From contig JAIOAW010000010.1 in NCBI GenBank assembly GCA_019873625.1, positions 18,237 through 82,236 on the forward strand: a DNA stretch of 64,000 nt, given 5' to 3'. Numbering within the stretch: the first letter of the stretch is position 1; every line of letters starts with the position of its first letter. This document shows, piece by piece, positions 55,413 to 64,000 of the stretch. The notes below the pieces were generated by a model, which worked only from the letters and a program-made list of their open reading frames with translations, was not told the origin of the DNA and ran no database searches. Source of the stretch: Chloroflexota bacterium (GTDB lineage Bacteria > Chloroflexota > Anaerolineae > UBA1429). The translations under genes were made by a program, and so were the position numbers.

Positions 55413-58400
55413 CTAACGGGAATCCTTTAAAGAAATGCGAACTGGTTCTTTCATAGGCAAAGACTCTTGACTACTGCTTCCTCCGGCTAAATAGATTTCG
55501 TACTCCCAGAAAGAATAATTGTTCGTGTTGGGTGCCATTGCCAACGCGATTACGATAGCATAACGGCCGCTTCGAGTACCAATGTTGTGTCGATAAGTAC
55601 CTGGCTGGGAGATGGAATATTCATAACCCCAATAGGTTTCTCCATCATTAGACCAACCAATGTAATATTTAGCAGCATAGGCTGTATCCCACCGAATAAC
55701 CACTTGATCGAACGTTTTTTGGTCGCCCAGATCCACATACCAATATTCGAAATCAGATGAATCTGGCATTGAGGCCCAACGAGTTGTCAAATTCCCATCA
55801 TTGCCATAGCGCGGGAGGTAAGTTGAACTCTCAGCGGACGAAGCGTACGAAGGACGCCCAAGCGCGATATTTGGAGACGTTTGAGCGGCCCAGGAGAGTT
55901 TAGCGGTAGCGCCGCCGCTGTTCTCATAGTATTCGACTTTGAGGGTATGCTGGCCGGCGGTGAGGTATTTGGAGGCGCGGTAGGTGGTGGGGGCCTGATC
56001 GCGCCAGGCGTCGATGAGGAGGGTATTATCGACCCAGAGGCGGATACCGTCATCGGCGGTGGCGGTGAACTCGTAGGTGGCGTTGGCATCGAAGGTGAAG
56101 GGGCCCTGCCAACGGACGGAGAAGTTATCGGTATTGACGCCACTGCCGGGGCCTCCGCTGCCCCAGTCGTAGTTGATGGCGGACTCATCGCGTTGGAGGA
56201 CGGGGGAGCCGGAGAGGGAGCGGTTGTTGAAGTAGGCGGCGCACCACTTGTTTATGGCCCCACTGCAGCCGGTAGAGGGCTGGGTAGCCCAGGAGAGTTT
56301 AGCGGTAGCGCCGCCGCTGTTCTCATAGTATTCGACTTTGAGGGTATGCTGGCCGGCGGTGAGGTATTTGGAGGCGCGGTAGGTGGTGGGGGCCTGATCG
56401 CGCCAGGCGTCGATGAGGAGGGTATTATCGACCCAGAGGCGGATACCGTCATCGGCGGTGGCGGTGAACTCGTAGGTGGCGTTGGCATCGAAGGTGAAGG
56501 GGCCCTGCCAACGGACGGAGAAGTTATCGGTATTGACGCCACTGCCGGGGCCTCCGCTGCCCCAGTCGTAGTTGATGGCGGACTCATCGCGTTGGAGGAC
56601 GGGGGAGCCGGAGAGGGAGCGGTTGTTGAAGTAGGCGGCGCACCACTTGTTTATGGCCCCACTGCAGCCGGTAGAGGCTCGGTAGCCGCTATCGGCTGCG
56701 CTGAAATTACTGCATCCGCTCGTGTTGCACGCTTTGATGCGATAGTAATAAGTCACATTTTCGGAAACACTACTATCGTCATAAGTTGTATCTGAGAGTT
56801 CGATGATTTTGCTACCGTTGTCGGTTGCCACCATTGAGCGCCATACCTCGTAATAGGTAGCATCGGCAGAAGCATTCCAAGTAATACGAATTCGATCAAC
56901 ATAGGTGCCATCTGACGCACTGACCCCAGAAGGTGCGGAAGGTGTGCTAACGGCTCGGTAACCGCTATCATAGGCGCTAAAACCAGTACAGCCGATATTG
57001 CACGCCCTTACGCGATAGTAATAAGTTGTACCTACCACAGCCGTCATATCATCATAACTCGTGGACACAGGATCGGCGATTTTGACGCCGTTATCGGCCG
57101 CTGAGGTTGATCGCCAAACTTCATAGCGCTTTGCGCCATCCACCGCGTTCCAAGTTACGCGAACTCTATCAGAAAAAGTGCCATCAGAAGCTGAAACACC
57201 CGTAGGCGTTTGAGTTGGCGTCAAATAGGCACACGACTCGTTGGATGGAGCCGATTCTCCAGATGCATTCACTGCGGTAACCTTGTAACAGTAGTATGGT
57301 GCACCCGTCAGGTTTCGATCTTGATACGTTGTTACATTTGCGCTTGTGGAGGCTAAATATGCACTATCGCGATATATTTTGAACCCCGTTTCATTATCCG
57401 AACCGTCTTGCCAGGAAAGATCGATTTGGTTGCTCGAAATGATCGTAGCCGTGAGGCCGTATGGTGGGTTGGGAGGTGGTTGCGAGACAGAAAATGTCCA
57501 AATAGAACTGAAGGGACTTTCCCCATACTCGTTACGGGCTTTTACCTTCCAACTATAGGTACCAGCCTGCATGAGGCCCAGGCGCCACTCCGAGCTAGCC
57601 AGCCATCCCGATTCCACATTAACTCCTGATCCGAAGATATAGGCATAATACTGAGTAGCATTGGAGGCGGCGTTCCACTTGAGAGTTACAGGGGTATCCC
57701 AATTGATAATACTCCCATTTGTCGGAGAAATAAGAGTTGGCGCCGAAGGCAAACAGCTGGTTATTCTGGTCCAGTTTAGTGAAAGGTTGGCGTAGCCTCC
57801 TGCTTCATAGTGGTCTAGCTCGATTTCGTGATACCCTTGGCTTAGATCGACTTCTACTTCATGAGTGCCGACGCTGCCCCACTGATCTAATTTGAGAATA
57901 CCATCGATCTTTAACCTGGCGCCGTCATCGTGGTTCACCCTGAAGCGGTAACGCCCACAGTCAAAATACACACGCCGTCGAAACTTGGTGCTAAAATTAT
58001 CACTGGGCATATCCCAACCAGGGCTACCGGTTCCCCATACCTTGTTAAGGTCGCCTGTCCCTTCATTACGCCGGGCGAAAGCATCCCACCATTGATTTGT
58101 GTTGATCCAATATTCACCATACCATTGATTAGGATCTCGGTCCTCATGGGGAATTTCATAGCCCGGGCCCCACCACCACGCCGTGAGTTTGGCCAAACCC
58201 AATGTATCGGCAAATTCGACCCTTAAATCATAATCACCTTCGGTCAGTTGTCTCAGCTCGTAGTGTTGGGTTGATTCGGCCCATTTGTTCACTACGAGAT
58301 CGTTGTTGACATAGAATCGTGCCCAATCGTCTGCATCCAACGCAAAAGTGTACATTCCGGAATATAAGTGCACACGTCGTGTAATACGGGCGCCCCAATG

Positions 58401-59966
58401 GTCGCTAGGGCAACCGCTGGTAGGCGCACCATCTCCCCAATCCATAAAGATAAAAGCATTATTGTACCCCGTCGTCGAACCACATCGGCTGGTCAACTCC
58501 TTATTGCTAAAGTATTCTACCTGCCATAAACCAGGAGCGGGCGTAGGCGCTAGCGTAGGTTGCGGTACTCCGGAAGCATCGATACGAAAAGCCCATGGCC
58601 CTCCTCGTGAGCCATAACCTGCGTTATTATGCGGCCAAATTGCCCAATAAAGGGTTTTTCTCTCATAATTTGAAGGAATCGTTTCCGTTGTCTCACTTTT
58701 GTCTGCAGAAATGCCGTGATCAATAATCCAGGGAGGATTATCAATATCTGGGTGATCCGCAACACGGAAGGTGTAGTAGTCTAGCCCCGAACAACTCGGC
58801 GGGGTCCACGTAAACCGAACTTGGAAGCTATTCAGTGTTACACCATCGCGAGGATAGCCATTAGTGGGGGCAGAACATATCCCTGTTGAGGGCCAGTTTC
58901 CGGATATGAGTTCATCACAGGGTTGCAAGCTATCCCACGATCTCTCCGCAAAATCGACCGTCGTAATGCTTCCTGCCGGAGGCCACATCGCGTCTTCGGG
59001 ATTTGAGGGATCGGGCCAGTTGCTTGGGCTGGGTATTGCGGTTGAAATATGGTAATGCAAATGCGGAGTTGTAGTGAACCCCGTCATACCTACTTCGCCA
59101 ATTATGTCGCCAGCCCGAACTGTATCACCGACATTTACAAAAGCCCCATTGTAAGCGAGATGCCAATACCACGAATACTCATTGGACGCATTCTGCACTA
59201 TGATAAAGTTGGCTTTCTTCCAACAGCTAAGCGTTCCACAGTAGTTATTGTTAGGGCTGCTTTCTTTAACAAAGATGACAGTGCCGGGTTTTGATGCCAC
59301 GACATAAGTGCTTGGTTCCTTGAACTGGAAATCGAGCTGATTGTCATGTCCTACATAGTTACAACTGCCAGAGGCACAATTACATGTCCCTTTGTTAAGG
59401 ACTTTCCCTTTCTTACCACCTGACCAGGGTAGCTTATGTCCGCCTACCCCTTGAGTTCCAAACGTATTCTCAGAAACCCACAGGAAATTTTTCGTTTGTG
59501 GATCCATGAAATCATCATTAAGGGACATAAGAGCATCGTTATATGCTTTAGCGGAACTAATTCCCGGAACGAAACCAGACCATCCATCAATAGCATATCG
59601 CAATGCGACTATTACTCGAGCCAAGTACAAATCCGGGTTTCCTTCCTTGTCAAGTGCCTGAACTTCTGCAATCGCCTGATTTGCCTGAATCTTAGTTCTT
59701 ACAATGCGAAACTGATATTTTGGTTTGAATTGATCATTTAAAATCTTAATATATGAAGAAAATACTTCTTCGGCAGATGCAAAATACCCTAATGTAATTG
59801 GGGTTTTTATATCATAGTCATCACTGTTGAATGGCATCCCCGCTTGGACACGGATATTCCTAGGTATACCAAATAAGCCTTCGGGTAGGATGCTTGCTTG
59901 AAGGGCTAGACATAGGATGATGGAAAAAAGTGTACGCTTGTAGATATTACGTCTTTGGGGATGCAT
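55413..59966 (-). CDS. giant secreted M23-peptidase/PA14/FN3/discoidin protein
   Basis: A 1517-residue exported protein. Signal peptide about 1-33 (RTLFSIILCLALQASILPEG). An M23 LytM-type domain lies at about 195-320, with GHDNQLDF and the HLHYH zinc motif. Next come an FN3-like region, two PA14-type domains (about 478-590, LWQVEYFSNKELTS; 610-730, QWYGEYW), several FN3 repeats (for example GVSASDGTYVDRIRITWNAS), two identical PA14 domains (about 1096-1226 and 1229-1359) and an F5/8 type C (discoidin) domain to about 1490. It probably binds carbohydrate and cleaves peptidoglycan or another peptide. ATG 59966 is fixed by AAAAAAGGAGGAAAT. The gene is AT-richer than its surroundings except for the PA14 repeats. 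Confidence 0.85.
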   Translation of the reverse strand: MHPQRRNIYKRTLFSIILCLALQASILPEGLFGIPRNIRVQAGMPFNSDDYDIKTPITLGYFASAEEVFSSYIKILNDQFKPKYQFRIVRTKIQANQAIAEVQALDKEGNPDLYLARVIVALRYAIDGWSGFVPGISSAKAYNDALMSLNDDFMDPQTKNFLWVSENTFGTQGVGGHKLPWSGGKKGKVLNKGTCNCASGSCNYVGHDNQLDFQFKEPSTYVVASKPGTVIFVKESSPNNNYCGTLSCWKKANFIIVQNASNEYSWYWHLAYNGAFVNVGDTVRAGDIIGEVGMTGFTTTPHLHYHISTAIPSPSNWPDPSNPEDAMWPPAGSITTVDFAERSWDSLQPCDELISGNWPSTGICSAPTNGYPRDGVTLNSFQVRFTWTPPSCSGLDYYTFRVADHPDIDNPPWIIDHGISADKSETTETIPSNYERKTLYWAIWPHNNAGYGSRGGPWAFRIDASGVPQPTLAPTPAPGLWQVEYFSNKELTSRCGSTTGYNNAFIFMDWGDGAPTSGCPSDHWGARITRRVHLYSGMYTFALDADDWARFYVNNDLVVNKWAESTQHYELRQLTEGDYDLRVEFADTLGLAKLTAWWWGPGYEIPHEDRDPNQWYGEYWINTNQWWDAFARRNEGTGDLNKVWGTGSPGWDMPSDNFSTKFRRRVYFDCGRYRFRVNHDDGARLKIDGILKLDQWGSVGTHEVEVDLSQGYHEIELDHYEAGGYANLSLNWTRITSCLPSAPTLISPTNGSIINWDTPVTLKWNAASNATQYYAYIFGSGVNVESGWLASSEWRLGLMQAGTYSWKVKARNEYGESPFSSIWTFSVSQPPPNPPYGLTATIISSNQIDLSWQDGSDNETGFKIYRDSAYLASTSANVTTYQDRNLTGAPYYCYKVTAVNASGESAPSNESCAYLTPTQTPTGVSASDGTFSDRVRVTWNAVDGAKRYEVWRSTSAADNGVKIADPVSTSYDDMTAVVGTTYYYRVRACNIGCTGFSAYDSGYRAVSTPSAPSGVSASDGTYVDRIRITWNASADATYYEVWRSMVATDNGSKIIELSDTTYDDSSVSENVTYYYRIKACNTSGCSNFSAADSGYRASTGCSGAINKWCAAYFNNRSLSGSPVLQRDESAINYDWGSGGPGSGVNTDNFSVRWQGPFTFDANATYEFTATADDGIRLWVDNTLLIDAWRDQAPTTYRASKYLTAGQHTLKVEYYENSGGATAKLSWATQPSTGCSGAINKWCAAYFNNRSLSGSPVLQRDESAINYDWGSGGPGSGVNTDNFSVRWQGPFTFDANATYEFTATADDGIRLWVDNTLLIDAWRDQAPTTYRASKYLTAGQHTLKVEYYENSGGATAKLSWAAQTSPNIALGRPSYASSAESSTYLPRYGNDGNLTTRWASMPDSSDFEYWYVDLGDQKTFDQVVIRWDTAYAAKYYIGWSNDGETYWGYEYSISQPGTYRHNIGTRSGRYAIVIALAMAPNTNNYSFWEYEIYLAGGSSSQESLPMKEPVRISLKDSR
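55889..56278 (-). repeat. tandem PA14-coding repeat, copy 2 in the protein
   Basis: A 390-base unit identical by eye to 56288-56677 (period 399 bases, 133 codons). It encodes an AINKWCAAYFNNRSLSG... PA14 domain. Confidence 0.9.
56288..56677 (-). repeat. tandem PA14-coding repeat, copy 1 in the protein
   Basis: The partner of 55889-56278 with the same 390-base sequence. The perfect identity points to a recent duplication or ongoing gene conversion. Confidence 0.9.
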
Positions 59967-60017
59967 ATTTCCTCCTTTTTTGAAATCAAGGATATTCATA
60001 TTTGTCTCGCTGATGAT

Positions 60018-60047
60018 ATTATAGATCGAAAGATAGATGTGTGTCAA
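60018..60047 (-). promoter_or_regulatory. consensus promoter of the giant secreted-protein gene
   Basis: TTGACA (60042-60047), 18-base spacer, TATAAT (60018-60023) on the minus strand. The region 60048-60288 between this and the next promoter holds no gene that I can support. Confidence 0.82.
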
Positions 60048-60288
60048 GGTATTTGGGGTAGTAAATCCCATAAATTTTCTCGGGAAGATACTTACCTTTT
60101 CAATACAGGCTAATCGGCTTTCACTGCCATTCCTTTACTTCGGGGGGTGTGCACCCTGTGGGGGATGTATATAGCATAAAAGCAATACTGGTATGATGTA
60201 TTTTTTTATTCCTCTTCCCCGTTGGATAGTATCGGCGCAGCTGAAACGATAACGCATTTCGAGTTGGAGAATGACTTGTTTGGGTGTG

Positions 60289-60316
60289 TTGCGAAACGCC
60301 CAAAGTGTGATACAAT
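60289..60316 (+). promoter_or_regulatory. promoter of the STAND/BTAD regulator
   Basis: TTGCGA (60289-60294), 16-base spacer, TACAAT (60311-60316). An imperfect inverted repeat, TGGGTGT...ACGCCCA at about 60281-60302, overlaps the -35 and may be an operator. Confidence 0.72.
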
Positions 60317-60363
60317 AGCCCTAAGCGTCGCGTTCCTTTGCCTTTATGCAACGGGTGGGACGA

Positions 60364-63300
60364 ATGAGCGCTGTCTATCCGTTGATTAGCACCAAGACCC
60401 GCATCCCGCCGCGCGCCGAGACCCTCCTGCGCCGCGAGCGGTTGCTCAACTTTATCCACAGCAATATCCAGCACAAGTTGATCCTCATCTCGGCGGGGGC
60501 TGGCTACGGCAAGACGTCTCTCCTCATTGATTATGCCTATGATACGGATTTGCCCATCTGTTGGCTCTCGCTCGATGCGAACGATGCCTACGTTCCCACG
60601 TTCGTCGAGTATCTCGTCGAGGCCTTTCGGGTGCGCTTCCCCCAATTCGGCCAGCGCATTCTCGATGTTCTGCGCCGGTACACGGGGCCGGCGGAGGACG
60701 TAGAACCGTTCGTTCGGCTCCTCATCGAGGAAATCGAACGGGCGGTAGATACCTATACCGTCCTTATCCTCGACGATTACCAAGAGGTGCTGGAAAGCGA
60801 ACCGGTCAATGCCCTTCTCGATGGCCTTTTGCGCTATTTGCCCGAGCAGTGCCACATCATCTTGGCCTCGCGCGGCATCCCGCGGCGGCTGACCCTTTCG
60901 CGCTTGGCCGCTCGCCAAGAGGTGGTGGGCCTAGGCGTCAACCATCTGCGCTTCACCGAGGATGAGATTCGCCTGGTGCTCCAGGCCCTTGGGCGAGATG
61001 ATTTCACGCCGGAACAGGTCCATCTTTTGGCCGAACGATCCGAGGGGTGGATCACGGGCGTCCTCCTGGCCATCCAGACCGACCGGTGGACGGAGACGCG
61101 GGAGGATATCCTGCGCCTTTCGGGCACGAACGAGGGCGTCTTTGACTATATGGCGGGCGAAATCCTCGAAAAGCAAGAGCCGGCCATCCGCGACTTTTTG
61201 CTGGGGAGTTCGCTCCTAGGGGAGATGAGCGCTCCCCTATGCGATGCGCTCCTGAGGATCACCAATTCGGCCCAAATCCTGAATTACCTTGTGACCCAGG
61301 GCCTCTTTACCTCGCGGCTCGATGCGGAAGGCATCTGGTATCGCTATCACCAGATGTTCCGCGAGTTTCTGAACGCCAAACTCCAGAGAGACGATCCCGC
61401 GCTCTTCCGCCACCTTTGCCTGCGCCAGGCCGAGTTGATGGCCAACCAAGGGCGTTGGTTCCAGGCCATCGAGGGGTATCTCGCGGCGGGGGCCTACGAA
61501 CAGGCGGCGGATGCCGTCGAGATCGTGGCCCAAGAGATGTTCCTATCGGGCAACCGCAAACAACTCGCCCGCTGGATAGACTCCCTCCCCACCGAGGTGC
61601 TGGAACGGCATCCCCTCCTCATTCTGCGGCGCGGGCGCATCCACACGGAGAACGCCGAATGGGAACGCGCCGAGGCGATGTTGGATCGTTCCTTCCGCCT
61701 TTTGGTGGAACGCGAAGACCTGCTCAATGCCGCGCGCGCCCTGGTGCAGAGGGCCGCGATGTACCGCCTGCGCGGTGCGCCGGGTGAGGCCATCGCCATC
61801 TTGCAGCGCGCCCGCGAAATCGGCGGCGAACGGGATACCACCTGCGCGATTCAGGTGCACCATAACTTGGGCATTTGCTACCATATGCAGGGCCTCTTTG
61901 CCGAAGGCGATGCGGAACTGCGCACAGCCCTGGAAATCGCTCGCCGCGCGATGGACGATACGAATGCGGCCCTGGTGGCCCACGATATCGGCCGCACGGC
62001 CGTGATGCAAGGGCGCCTGTTGGAGGGACGGCAATATTTCCACCAAGCCTTGCTCTATTGGCGCAAGATCGGCAACCTGAGCGAACTCTCGACCACGCTC
62101 CAAGGCCTGGGCGTGGTGCATCATTACCTCGGCCAATATAACGAGGCCGAGAGCCGCTTTCAAGAGAGCCTGGCCAAGGCGCGAGATCATTCCAACGTGC
62201 GCTTGGAGGCGTATGCCTTCCTCAACCTGGGGGACCTGTACCGCGATACGAACCAATACGCCAAGGCGCTGGAGGCCTACGCCGAGGCCATCGAGGCGGC
62301 CTCCGCCGGCCGCTACACGGACCTCATCCTATACGGGCAAGTTGGCAAGGCGGAGGTCTACCGCCTGATGGGCGATCTCGACGAGGCCCACCGCCTCTTG
62401 GTGGAGACGCTCGATCAGGCCCCGGAGTCCATGCACCCCTACGAGGCCGGCTTGTGCCGCCTCGGCCTTGGGGCGGTATGGTGCGCCTGGGGAGACGGCC
62501 TCCAGGCCAAGGAACACCTCAACGCCGCGCTGAGCCTTTTCGAACGGATTGGGGAGAAGCGTTCGCTGGGGCGCGCCCATCTGCATTTGGCCATCTTGGC
62601 CTATGCGCAATCGTCCGAGCGCGAGGTGGCCCAGCACCTCCGTGAGGTAGCCCGTCTGGCTGAGGAATTGGGCACTGAACAGTTCATTGTGGCCGAGGGG
62701 CCGGTCGTCGTGCCGCTCTTGCAGTATGGGGCCGAAGGGCTAAATGGCCTGCGCATCCGCGCGGAGATCGAACGGCTATTCCCCAGCGCGCCGGGGGTGC
62801 CCACCGCCTTCAGGCCGGCGCGCCGCTACGCGCTGGAACTCTATGGCCTGCGGGGTGGGCAGGTGCTCTTTGAGGGGAACCCGGTCATCTCTTGGGAGGC
62901 GGCCTCGGCGCGCGATATGGCCTTCCTGTTGGCCCTTTACCCCAATGGCCTGCCGCGCGATCAGATCATCGCGCACCTCTGGCCGGAGATCAACCCCGCC
63001 AAGGCGAGCAGCCAATTCTATGCTACGATGCACCGCCTGCGCAAGGCCCTCTCGAAAGATGCCGTGGTGTATGAGCACGGGCTGTATCGCCTCAACCCCT
63101 CGCGGCCTTATTGGTATGACGTGGCCGAGTTTGAAGAACTCGTGCGCCGGGCGCGAGCCGGCGGCGAGGCGGCTCATTTGGCGCGAGTGCGGGCTATTCA
63201 ACTCTACCAGACGGATTTCCTCGAGATGTGCGATTTGGAGTGGGCCGATAGCCTGCGCTATCAACTCCAAGTCGAGATCCTTGAGATCCTCAATGCCGAG

Positions 63301-63561
63301 GCCAACTATGCCTTGGCGAACGATAACCTCGCCGAGGCGGAGGCGCTTTTCTTACGCCTCTTGGGATATGACCCCTATGCCGAGTATGCCCATCGTGGCT
63401 TGATTCAGTGTCGCTTGCGGCGCAACGATCGAGATGGCGCCCTGCGGCAATTCCGCGAGTGCTTCCGCGTCCTCCAGGAGATCGGGAGCCAGCCCAGCGC
63501 CGAAACGATGGCCTTGTATCAAACCGTCCGCGCTGGGCGGCCAGCGCGCGCCATAGATTGA
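60364..63561 (+). CDS. STAND ATPase-TPR-winged helix-BTAD transcriptional regulator (MalT/SARP-like)
   Basis: A 1065-residue regulator. The N-terminal NTPase (about 10-330) follows an ISTKTRIPP start typical of MalT/LuxR-type STAND proteins, with Walker A SAGAGYGKTSLL (about 43-52) and Walker B VLILDDYQEV (about 132-141). A TPR solenoid fills about 380-760 (for example AALVAHDIGRTAVMQGRLLE and AYAFLNLGDLYRDTNQYAKA). The C-terminus carries an OmpR/SARP-like winged helix (about 840-930, LPRDQIIAHLWPEI...) and a BTAD domain (about 935-1060). The TPRs are the likely ligand-sensing part. ATG 60364 has GGGTGGGA before it; ATG 60346 is possible. It is followed by a terminator and two tiny peptide genes. 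Confidence 0.9.
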   Translation: MSAVYPLISTKTRIPPRAETLLRRERLLNFIHSNIQHKLILISAGAGYGKTSLLIDYAYDTDLPICWLSLDANDAYVPTFVEYLVEAFRVRFPQFGQRILDVLRRYTGPAEDVEPFVRLLIEEIERAVDTYTVLILDDYQEVLESEPVNALLDGLLRYLPEQCHIILASRGIPRRLTLSRLAARQEVVGLGVNHLRFTEDEIRLVLQALGRDDFTPEQVHLLAERSEGWITGVLLAIQTDRWTETREDILRLSGTNEGVFDYMAGEILEKQEPAIRDFLLGSSLLGEMSAPLCDALLRITNSAQILNYLVTQGLFTSRLDAEGIWYRYHQMFREFLNAKLQRDDPALFRHLCLRQAELMANQGRWFQAIEGYLAAGAYEQAADAVEIVAQEMFLSGNRKQLARWIDSLPTEVLERHPLLILRRGRIHTENAEWERAEAMLDRSFRLLVEREDLLNAARALVQRAAMYRLRGAPGEAIAILQRAREIGGERDTTCAIQVHHNLGICYHMQGLFAEGDAELRTALEIARRAMDDTNAALVAHDIGRTAVMQGRLLEGRQYFHQALLYWRKIGNLSELSTTLQGLGVVHHYLGQYNEAESRFQESLAKARDHSNVRLEAYAFLNLGDLYRDTNQYAKALEAYAEAIEAASAGRYTDLILYGQVGKAEVYRLMGDLDEAHRLLVETLDQAPESMHPYEAGLCRLGLGAVWCAWGDGLQAKEHLNAALSLFERIGEKRSLGRAHLHLAILAYAQSSEREVAQHLREVARLAEELGTEQFIVAEGPVVVPLLQYGAEGLNGLRIRAEIERLFPSAPGVPTAFRPARRYALELYGLRGGQVLFEGNPVISWEAASARDMAFLLALYPNGLPRDQIIAHLWPEINPAKASSQFYATMHRLRKALSKDAVVYEHGLYRLNPSRPYWYDVAEFEELVRRARAGGEAAHLARVRAIQLYQTDFLEMCDLEWADSLRYQLQVEILEILNAEANYALANDNLAEAEALFLRLLGYDPYAEYAHRGLIQCRLRRNDRDGALRQFRECFRVLQEIGSQPSAETMALYQTVRAGRPARAID

Positions 63562-63597
63562 GTTCTCGCCGCCTTCACAACAGATTGCGGATGGCAT

Positions 63598-63631
63598 CTG
63601 CTCCGCTCCCCAGAGCGGAGCAGATTTTTTT
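63598..63631 (+). terminator. intrinsic terminator of the STAND/BTAD regulator
   Basis: An 11-bp stem (63598-63608 with 63614-63624, loop CCCCA) followed by A and a run of seven T. It separates the regulator transcript from the peptide genes. Confidence 0.92.
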
Positions 63632-63654
63632 GAAAATTCCCCCGCAAGAGGCCC

Positions 63655-63704
63655 TTTTCGTAAGGGTTTTGTAAGGGCTTTTCGTTAGACTGGAGGTGTA
63701 ATCT
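63655..63704 (+). promoter_or_regulatory. activator-type promoter with three 12-bp direct repeats
   Basis: Three consecutive units, TTTTCGTAAGGG (63655-63666), TTTTGTAAGGGC (63667-63678) and TTTTCGTTAGAC (63679-63690); GTAAGGG recurs at 11-bp spacing in the first two. A -10-like TGTAAT (63697-63702) or TAATCT (63699-63704) follows 6-8 bases after the last repeat, and there is no -35 match. This is the arrangement SARP-type activators use, and the upstream gene encodes a SARP-like winged helix. Confidence 0.6.
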
Positions 63705-63725
63705 CGAGCGGGGGAGGATACGGCT

Positions 63726-63830
63726 ATGAAAAAGTTCTACCTGACCATCGTGTACGTGGTCCTGTCCTTGGGCGCCATCCTCGTTGCGAGCGGTGCGCCC
63801 ATTCCCTGGACGGGCACCGGCGGCCCCTGA
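63726..63830 (+). CDS. small secreted signal-peptide-like protein, copy 1 (34 aa)
   Basis: A 34-codon gene. MKK is followed by a hydrophobic stretch to about residue 22, then SGA and the tail PIPWTGTGGP. It looks like an export signal plus a short mature peptide, or a small one-pass membrane peptide. GGGGAGG (63711-63717) lies eight bases before the ATG. The second copy differs in protein only at residue 20 (Val/Ile) while several third positions differ, so the peptide sequence is under selection. It directly follows the STAND/TPR/BTAD regulator and its terminator. Confidence 0.75.
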   Translation: MKKFYLTIVYVVLSLGAILVASGAPIPWTGTGGP

Positions 63831-63884
63831 TCATAAGCTGAGTCGGGTTATCACGCGCACATACGGCATAAGGGGGTGCTCACT

Positions 63885-63989
63885 ATGAAAAAGTTCTATC
63901 TGACCATCGTCTATGTGGTCCTGTCCTTGGGCGCCATCCTCATCGCGAGCGGCGCGCCCATCCCCTGGACGGGCACCGGCGGCCCCTGA
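63885..63989 (+). CDS. small secreted signal-peptide-like protein, copy 2 (34 aa)
   Basis: The same length and layout as the gene at 63726, ending in the same PIPWTGTGGP, with Ile at residue 20. Its own ribosome binding site AGGGGGTG (63871-63878) is six bases before the ATG. Both copies are followed by TGATCATAA, so the repeat unit is about 159 bases and may continue beyond 64000. Synonymous differences (for example TAC/TAT, GTG/GTC, GGT/GGC) show the copies are not a fresh duplication. Confidence 0.75.
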   Translation: MKKFYLTIVYVVLSLGAILIASGAPIPWTGTGGP

Positions 63990-64000
63990 TCATAAACCGA

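What the first reader, a model, noticed from the sequence alone, without database searches (positions are those of the whole stretch)
60289..63989. Candidate new peptide-signalling system: STAND-TPR-BTAD regulator with tandem 34-residue peptide genes
Seen: a regulator with a TPR solenoid and a SARP-like winged helix is followed by a terminator and then two tiny genes with good ribosome binding sites. Their products share a hydrophobic leader and an identical Pro/Trp/Gly tail (PIPWTGTGGP) despite synonymous drift. Known: in RRNPP systems (PlcR-PapR, Rgg-SHP) TPR regulators sense short exported peptides encoded next to them. Inference: the 34-mers are pheromone precursors or RiPP-like products sensed by the TPR domain. 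I know of no described STAND/BTAD regulator paired with peptides of this type.
Basis: partly seen in the sequence, partly recalled or inferred. Interest (0 to 1): 0.93.

Follow-up and report, generated by a model that had tools for sequence, protein, structure and literature searches.

The report
Self-contained peptide signalling circuit in Anaerolineae
Across many Anaerolineae bacteria one large switch protein sits next to a tiny membrane-peptide gene, followed by two more conserved genes that it is predicted to turn on through a repeated DNA motif, and the peptide likely acts as the signal; related peptides occur with the same membrane partner in other phyla beside a different signalling enzyme, so this may be a widespread undescribed peptide-signalling module.

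Summary
The regulator and both 34-residue peptide genes are present. The window stops at a contig end; a second contig carries two more intact copies, then a DUF5317 membrane protein and a 74-aa Os1348-type protein. In the 64 of 248 class genomes with a peptide hit at E<=1e-4, the regulator lies directly upstream in 58, DUF5317 downstream in 53 and the Os1348 protein in 58. The peptide is under purifying selection (pN/pS 0.16), tail included. It has a basic start, one hydrophobic stretch, a near-invariant GAP and a short tail. Upstream lie direct repeats with an 11- or 12-bp period, as SARP activators bind (36 of 64; control 3 of 53), kept in two genomes whose regulator is elsewhere. In 23 of 37 other DUF5317 loci (Bacillota, Bipolaricaulota and others) a related MKW...KW peptide sits with an HD-domain membrane protein instead. 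Shown: a conserved peptide operon. Strongly inferred: the regulator activates it. Untested: that the peptide is the regulator's ligand. The main rival is that peptide and DUF5317 are the output. It is not an RRNPP member (receptor too long); it works partly like AfsR-afsS.

The parts
60346..63561 (+). STAND-TPR-SARP regulator (1071 aa)
   Evidence: Pfam TPR_12, TPR_MalT, BTAD; profile of 35 regulators matches MalT NTPase 8bob (E 4.6e-74) and the AfsR SARP region 8jke (E 5.2e-42); AF2 model pLDDT 88.5, pTM 0.52
60502..60516 (+). P-loop GYGKT of the NTPase
   Evidence: invariant in 35 of 35 aligned regulators
61396..62778 (+). helical TPR-like solenoid, model residues 345-805
   Evidence: DSSP of the model; MalT domain III 1hz4 TMt 0.77
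63118..63531 (+). BTAD part of the C-terminal SARP region
   Evidence: PF03704, residues 925-1062, E 5e-11
63596..63625 (+). intrinsic terminator after the regulator (T tail follows)
   Evidence: 13-pair stem, loop 4, T run
63660..63690 (+). SARP-type direct repeats: GTAAGGG at 63660 and 63671 (11-bp period), imperfect GTTAGAC at 63684-63690, which ends 8 bp before the -10-like element
   Evidence: sequence; TRF row 63654-63685; 18-bp pattern found once in the genome at 0 mismatches, one more place at 3
63699..63704 (+). -10-like TAATCT
   Evidence: sequence and spacing only; the sigma-70 scan found no promoter at its thresholds
63726..63830 (+). peptide gene 1, MKKFYLTIVYVVLSLGAILVASGAPIPWTGTGGP
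   Evidence: family A4
63885..63989 (+). peptide gene 2 (V20I)
   Evidence: synonymous excess

Best explanation
The regulator likely switches on an operon of one or more short membrane peptides, a DUF5317 membrane protein and an Os1348-type protein, and the peptide is likely the signal that returns to the regulator, which would close a peptide-signalling loop. Shown: the gene set, its conservation in neighbourhood and frame, purifying selection on the peptide, and direct repeats with an 11- or 12-bp period ahead of the peptide gene in 36 of 64 genomes. Strongly inferred: the C-terminal SARP region binds these repeats and activates the operon, as AfsR does at afsS. Predicted: the peptide sits N-in, with its short tail outside, on the same side as the most conserved loop of DUF5317. 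Inferred without test: DUF5317 cleaves, releases or presents the peptide, and the tail or the peptide is perceived through the TPR/STAND part. In the sister branch the output would be an HD-GYP-type protein instead of the SARP activator.
For: Linkage: regulator directly upstream in 58 of 64 genomes, DUF5317 within 1.5 kb downstream in 53, Os1348 within 2 kb in 58; the peptide search was of whole genomes, so place was free. In 22 genomes searched with the regulator profile, 19 have a full-length match of 712 bits or more; the best one lies beside the peptide in 16 and elsewhere in 3 (G053, G071, G088). G001 and G008, without peptide hit, have no match at E<=1e-25; G005, without peptide hit, has a partial one at a contig end. 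Operator: repeats at lag 11 or 12 in 36 of 64 vs 3 of 53 upstream of DUF5317; earlier set 33 of 47, shuffles mean 1.85, maximum 7, upstream of other mechanical ORFs 13 of 252, upstream of the regulator itself 4 of 40. In G053 and G088 the repeats are kept where the regulator lies on another contig. Signal reading: copies vary (1 in 54, 2 in 9, 3 in 1 of 64; at least 4 intact here), tails vary between lineages, DUF5317 is in 62 of 64 genomes, and a related peptide plus DUF5317 is found with an HD-domain membrane protein in 23 of 37 other DUF5317 loci. K+R average 3.11 before vs 0.29 after the hydrophobic stretch.
Against: No ligand, export or processing was tested. The strict operator pattern occurs at one place only in 9 of 12 genomes and exactly once in its own genome, so the operon products may themselves be the output. 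HD-branch tails are very short and keep K-W across phyla, unlike species-specific pheromones. The tail is about as constrained as the leader between close relatives (pN/pS 0.20 vs 0.17). 28 of 64 upstream regions lack the repeat at the threshold, G071 among them, and some of the 36 are not of the expected motif by eye (G007, G011). Full-length regulator paralogues without a peptide hit exist (702.8 bits in G041, 660.8 in G053). No exporter or protease is in the four-gene set; flanking genes were not surveyed systematically. DUF5317 has no PDB match at E<=0.001.
Confidence: 0.45

Rival explanations
1. The peptide, DUF5317 and the Os1348 protein are the output: a small membrane peptide works as a subunit or effector with DUF5317 in the envelope, and the regulator is a dedicated activator that senses something else, as AfsR does for afsS.
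For: Strict operator at a single place in 9 of 12 genomes; K and W near the end at 90% or more of 23 HD-branch peptides; DUF5317 in 62 of 64 peptide genomes; AfsR-afsS precedent (PMC10936776, passages). In L186 a 275-aa Cys-rich protein with the same leader as the peptides also follows such repeats.
Against: It does not explain why the same pair is found with two unrelated signalling proteins, nor the copy number changes and variable tails in the regulator branch.
Confidence: 0.33
2. The peptide is a RiPP-like or bacteriocin-like product under a pathway-specific SARP activator, with DUF5317 for maturation or immunity and the Os1348 (NHLP clan) protein as RiPP partner.
For: Os1348 domain NF038399 above its cut-off (43.8 vs 40); [quoted passage not shown]
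Against: No modification enzyme or exporter is in the four-gene set (flanks not surveyed systematically); the peptide is strongly constrained and its operon order widely kept (43 of 64), unlike fast-evolving bacteriocins; PF14407 is below its cut-off (28.6 vs 48).
Confidence: 0.12
3. The small ORF is a regulatory leader or a chance ORF and not a functional peptide.
For: It is short and sits just upstream of the operon's larger genes.
Against: pN 0.050 vs pS 0.301 over 9 pairs of loci, ribosome sites, tandem copies, and loci where the peptide is not next to DUF5317.
Confidence: 0.02

Closest known systems
AfsR-afsS (Streptomyces large SARP and its target gene)
   Same: SARP + NTPase + TPR regulator and a direct-repeat operator with 11-bp period ahead of its target gene (PMC10936776 passages); the regulator profile matches the AfsR SARP region.
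   Different: SARP region is C-terminal here (N-terminal in AfsR); the target is a membrane peptide with DUF5317 and Os1348 genes. AfsS is, as recalled, a 63-aa cytoplasmic protein.
MalT-type STAND activators
   Same: N-terminal NTPase matches MalT over profile positions 11-422; TPR solenoid like MalT domain III.
   Different: Output is SARP/BTAD, not a LuxR-type HTH (recalled for MalT); NF003420 score 229 is below the MalT cut-off 537.
RRNPP quorum sensing (PlcR-PapR, Rgg-SHP, Rap-Phr)
   Same: Small hydrophobic-leader peptide gene next to a TPR regulator; duplicated pheromones are described there (PMC11343458 abstract).
   Different: Receptor 1071 aa vs 250-500 aa (PMC10075063 passages); STAND NTPase; SARP output; extra conserved membrane partner; Chloroflexota.
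Sister branch: MKW...KW peptide + MASE9-like/HD_5 protein + DUF5317
   Same: Related peptide (hhalign probability 95.4, E 1.9e-8 over 25 columns) and DUF5317.
   Different: Partner is an HD_5 membrane protein (HD-GYP type is my label). This branch was also found here.
PF17248 (DUF5317)
   Same: The downstream membrane protein is a clear member (114.5 bits, cut-off 25).
   Different: Family of unknown function; no paper in the held library names it.

Membership tests
RRNPP | propeptide gene small and directly next to the receptor gene | tested here: met
   58 of 64 genomes; criteria from PMC10075063 passages
RRNPP | receptor with TPR repeats | tested here: met
RRNPP | receptor 250-500 aa | tested here: not met
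   1071 aa; family model 1075 positions
RRNPP | propeptide secreted by Sec (SignalP) | not testable with these tools
   only charge and hydrophobicity computed
RRNPP | mature peptide binds the TPR domain | not testable with these tools
   needs a binding assay
SARP-controlled promoter | direct repeats at 11 or 22 bp ahead of the target | tested here: met
   lag 11 in 20 and lag 12 in 16 of 64 loci, 28 below the threshold; the 12-bp period is a small departure
SARP-controlled promoter | 3' repeat 8 bp from the -10 element | tested here: inconclusive
   8 bp in the window only if the imperfect third repeat counts; other loci not counted
SARP (large) regulators | wHTH + BTAD with NTPase and TPR | tested here: met
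   BTAD by Pfam; wHTH only through the alignment to AfsR's SARP region, no Pfam wHTH hit; domain order reversed relative to AfsR
MalT equivalog | NF003420 cut-off 537 bits | tested here: not met
   229 bits
STAND NTPase | P-loop and acidic Walker B in an NTPase-TPR context | tested here: met
   G47-T51 and D137-D138 invariant in 35 of 35; fold matches 8bob and 6mfv
Os1348 NHLP clan | NF038399 above 40 bits | tested here: met
   43.8 bits, own genome's protein
Frankia_peptide PF14407 | gathering score 48 | tested here: not met
   28.6 bits

The most novel reading that the evidence does not exclude
A cross-phylum family of peptide-signalling systems whose core is a short membrane peptide with an (S/A/G)GA motif plus DUF5317, the maturation or presentation partner, and whose output has been swapped between a STAND-TPR-SARP gene activator (Anaerolineae) and a membrane HD-GYP c-di-GMP phosphodiesterase (Bacillota, Bipolaricaulota, Actinomycetota and others).
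Probability: 0.33. Interest if true: 0.95.

Novelty: categorically new. Interest (0 to 1): 0.86.

Why it matters
Peptide signalling through TPR receptors is described for Bacillota (PMC10075063 passages); my searches found nothing of this kind for Chloroflexota (listings). Here a peptide, an uncharacterised membrane family and a large STAND regulator form a conserved gene set with a readable operator, which gives a direct assay. It would offer a function for DUF5317 (no paper in the held library names it), a candidate ligand type for STAND-TPR-SARP proteins, and a second branch that would link related peptides to c-di-GMP.

Tried and rejected
RRNPP membership was rejected on receptor length. 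DUF5317 as a known fold: a confident model (pLDDT 94.1) gave no PDB match at E<=0.001; its invariant D146 and S161-x-G163-D164 suggested an aspartyl-protease idea from memory, which nothing here tests. A wide regulon was looked for with a strict pattern only, in 12 genomes that I chose: 4 extra sites in one genome (G105), 1 in another (G109), none at all in one (G102); the reversed control pattern gave 3 hits. Weaker sites would be missed. A leader/tail split of substitutions was faulty for sequences with a second GGP; I use instead. Two loci from the first peptide search (L045, L056; E about 0.03) showed neither regulator nor DUF5317 and were taken as chance hits. A homologue search of the large protein database was not possible for this length. 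Chance small ORF and leader-peptide readings were rejected on pN/pS.
Full report
WHAT IS THERE. The window holds a 1071-aa regulator (60346-63561) with TPR repeats and a BTAD domain, a terminator at 63596-63625 and two 34-aa ORFs (63726-63830, 63885-63989). Base 64000 is the end of contig C10. Contig C44 (L004) begins inside the same 159-bp tandem unit: a partial copy with an in-frame stop at the contig edge, possibly an assembly fault, then two intact copies, then DUF5317 (L004:376-942; PF17248, 114.5 bits) and a 74-aa protein (L004:993-1217) above the NCBIfam cut-off for Os1348 NHLP (43.8 vs 40). That C44 follows C10 is inferred. The peptide is found at four places in this genome and no others at E<=10; the regulator once at E<=1e-10.

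CONSERVATION. Of 100 genomes (own and relatives) 25 have a match at E<=0.1; 12 of the 99 others at E<=1e-3. A profile of 45 peptides searched in 248 genomes of the class (completeness 80 or more) gave 88 genomes at E<=0.01, the weaker ones doubtful. I kept the places at E<=1e-4 (the script's label says 1.2e-4, but the list stops at 7.7e-5): 64 genomes. In these the regulator is directly upstream (within 1 kb) in 58, DUF5317 within 1.5 kb downstream in 53, the Os1348 protein within 2 kb in 58; the order regulator-peptide-DUF5317-Os1348 holds in 43, with the last two exchanged in 5; the other 16 lack one or more in the stretch seen. The six without it: G053, G071, G088 (regulator elsewhere in the genome), G084 (2.2 kb upstream, behind at least one gene), G087 (contig starts 193 bases before the peptide), G086 (HD branch). 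Copies: 1 in 54, 2 in 9, 3 in 1. DUF5317 (E<=1e-15) occurs somewhere in 62 of the 64; the two without are 83% and 81% complete; 13 of the 75 genomes with DUF5317 have no kept peptide hit. A scan of named genomes with DUF5317 kept the best 80 of 232 loci; 12 are the same contigs as loci already held. Of the other 68, 31 have the regulator upstream, 30 of these with a candidate peptide judged by eye (L104 without; L110, L112 and L114 lack GAP; L112 and L114 share one peptide). One is a named strain, Bellilinea caldifistulae GOMI-1 (L119).

THE PEPTIDE. Basic start, about 15-20 hydrophobic residues, GAP (41 of 45 rows), then a short, often Gly-rich tail that differs between lineages. K+R average 3.11 before and 0.29 after the hydrophobic stretch, which predicts N-in with the tail outside. 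Over 9 pairs of loci pS is 0.301 and pN 0.050 (ratio 0.16); leader 0.17, tail 0.20. This points to a translated, selected product, tail included. In L186 (G084) a 275-aa Cys-rich protein starts with nearly the same leader as the peptides beside it: one case, but it suggests that the leader is an export or anchor signal.

THE OPERATOR. Ahead of the first peptide gene, a 9-base window repeats at 8 or 9 positions with lag 11 or 12 in 36 of 64 genomes (20 and 16); no other lag from 6 to 24 exceeds 4; upstream of DUF5317 the count is 3 of 53. A few of the 36 are not of the expected motif by eye (G007, G011), and several of the 28 below the threshold look like degenerate boxes. In the first set it was 33 of 47 (shuffles mean 1.85, maximum 7), 13 of 252 regions upstream of other mechanical ORFs and 4 of 40 upstream of the regulator. 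SARP proteins bind direct repeats with 11 or 22 bp period, the 3' one 8 bp from the -10 element (PMC10936776, passages; heptamers with 4-nt spacers in PMC5930380, passages). In the window GTAAGGG occurs at 63660 and 63671 and an imperfect GTTAGAC at 63684-63690, 8 bp before TAATCT at 63699. G053 and G088 keep such repeats where the regulator is on another contig, which argues for action in trans; G071 does not pass the threshold. The pattern GAAGCCTGTTTTGAAGCCT (2 mismatches) is at one place in 9 of 12 chosen genomes, at two in one, at five in one and absent in one; the reversed control gave 3 hits. In its own genome the window's box has one exact place and one at 3 mismatches.

THE REGULATOR. 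A profile of 35 regulators matches the MalT NTPase (8bob), AfsR's SARP region (8jke) and many TPR proteins, Rap and NprR among them. The model (pLDDT 88.5, pTM 0.52, so domain placement is uncertain) matches the MalT NTPase, a STAND-TPR protein (6mfv) and MalT domain III. It is thus a MalT-like STAND-TPR protein with a C-terminal AfsR-like SARP region. In 22 genomes searched, 19 have a full-length match of 712 bits or more; the best lies beside the peptide in 16. Weaker full-length paralogues without a peptide hit exist, for example 702.8 bits in G041 and 660.8 in G053.

DUF5317. Model pLDDT 94.1, no PDB match at E<=0.001. Charges place loops 17-31, 74-79 and the C-terminus inside and loop 97-161 outside; N97, G98, G99, M101, P102, D146, S161, G163 and D164 are invariant in 78 of 78. 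The conserved face is so predicted on the side of the peptide tail.

THE SISTER BRANCH. Of the 37 new named loci without the regulator, 23 have, within 2.6 kb on the same strand as DUF5317, a short peptide (MKW...GA..KW type; loose threshold E<=0.5) and an HD-domain protein; 5 have the HD gene only, 9 neither (L060 and L065 start within 850 bases of DUF5317). 4 of the 23 peptides (L094, L096, L122, L136) were not in the profile. Eight HD proteins tested all match HD_5 (PF13487) well above cut-off; MASE9 is above its cut-off in 5 of 8. By record title the 23 are Bacillota, Bipolaricaulota, Chloroflexota, one Actinomycetota and one Fraserbacteria. The two peptide profiles align with probability 95.4 over 25 columns; hydrophobic stretches can inflate this.

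HOW IT LIKELY WORKS. The regulator, when switched on, would activate the operon through the repeats. The peptide would insert with its tail outside, where DUF5317 would bind, cut or present it. I think it most likely (0.45) that the peptide is the signal and feeds back on the regulator, because the peptide-DUF5317 pair is found with two unrelated signalling proteins, copies vary and tails diversify. The main rival (0.33) is that the operon products are the output of a regulator that senses something else: the strict operator is nearly unique per genome, and in the HD branch the tails are almost constant across phyla. The data do not decide between them.

NOVELTY. No paper in the held library names DUF5317; searches for peptide systems of Chloroflexota and for STAND/TPR/SARP pairs gave no description of this one (listings and starts of abstracts only; most subscription papers are not held). 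RRNPP: passages of PMC10075063 give receptor length 250-500 aa, not met here. I rate it categorically new at the level of the system; its regulator and operator are of known kinds.

Noticed in passing
55888-56687 (inside the - strand ORF 55413-60071): Two 399-bp tandem copies, 99% alike, in a 1552-aa secreted-looking protein; the repeat resembles a PA14-type domain by eye (recalled, not tested).
   Followed up: no
L186:4218-5042 (-): 275-aa Cys-rich protein sharing the N-terminal leader of the peptides beside it, behind three 11-bp-spaced repeats and a TACAGT: a possible cargo of the same leader.
   Followed up: partly
L144, L150, L153, L154 (G105): Four extra operator-like sites in one Anaerolineales genome, one ahead of an HU-HIG protein (PF18291); possible regulon.
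   Followed up: partly
L149:1626-3017 (G109): Operator-like site ahead of a GAF-domain protein.
   Followed up: partly
L241:1703-6754 (G088): The unlinked regulator of G088 is followed at once by genes that look like an ABC transporter ATPase and permease (by eye), so it may have another target there.
   Followed up: no
L004:1-83: Partial peptide copy with an in-frame stop at the very start of contig C44; decayed copy or assembly fault.
   Followed up: no
L181:721-820: A second peptide-like ORF in G260, with a second regulator-like gene on the opposite strand.
   Followed up: no
L077, L101, L105, L126, L136 and others: The HD branch (peptide + MASE9-like/HD_5 protein + DUF5317) in several phyla deserves its own survey.
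   Followed up: partly
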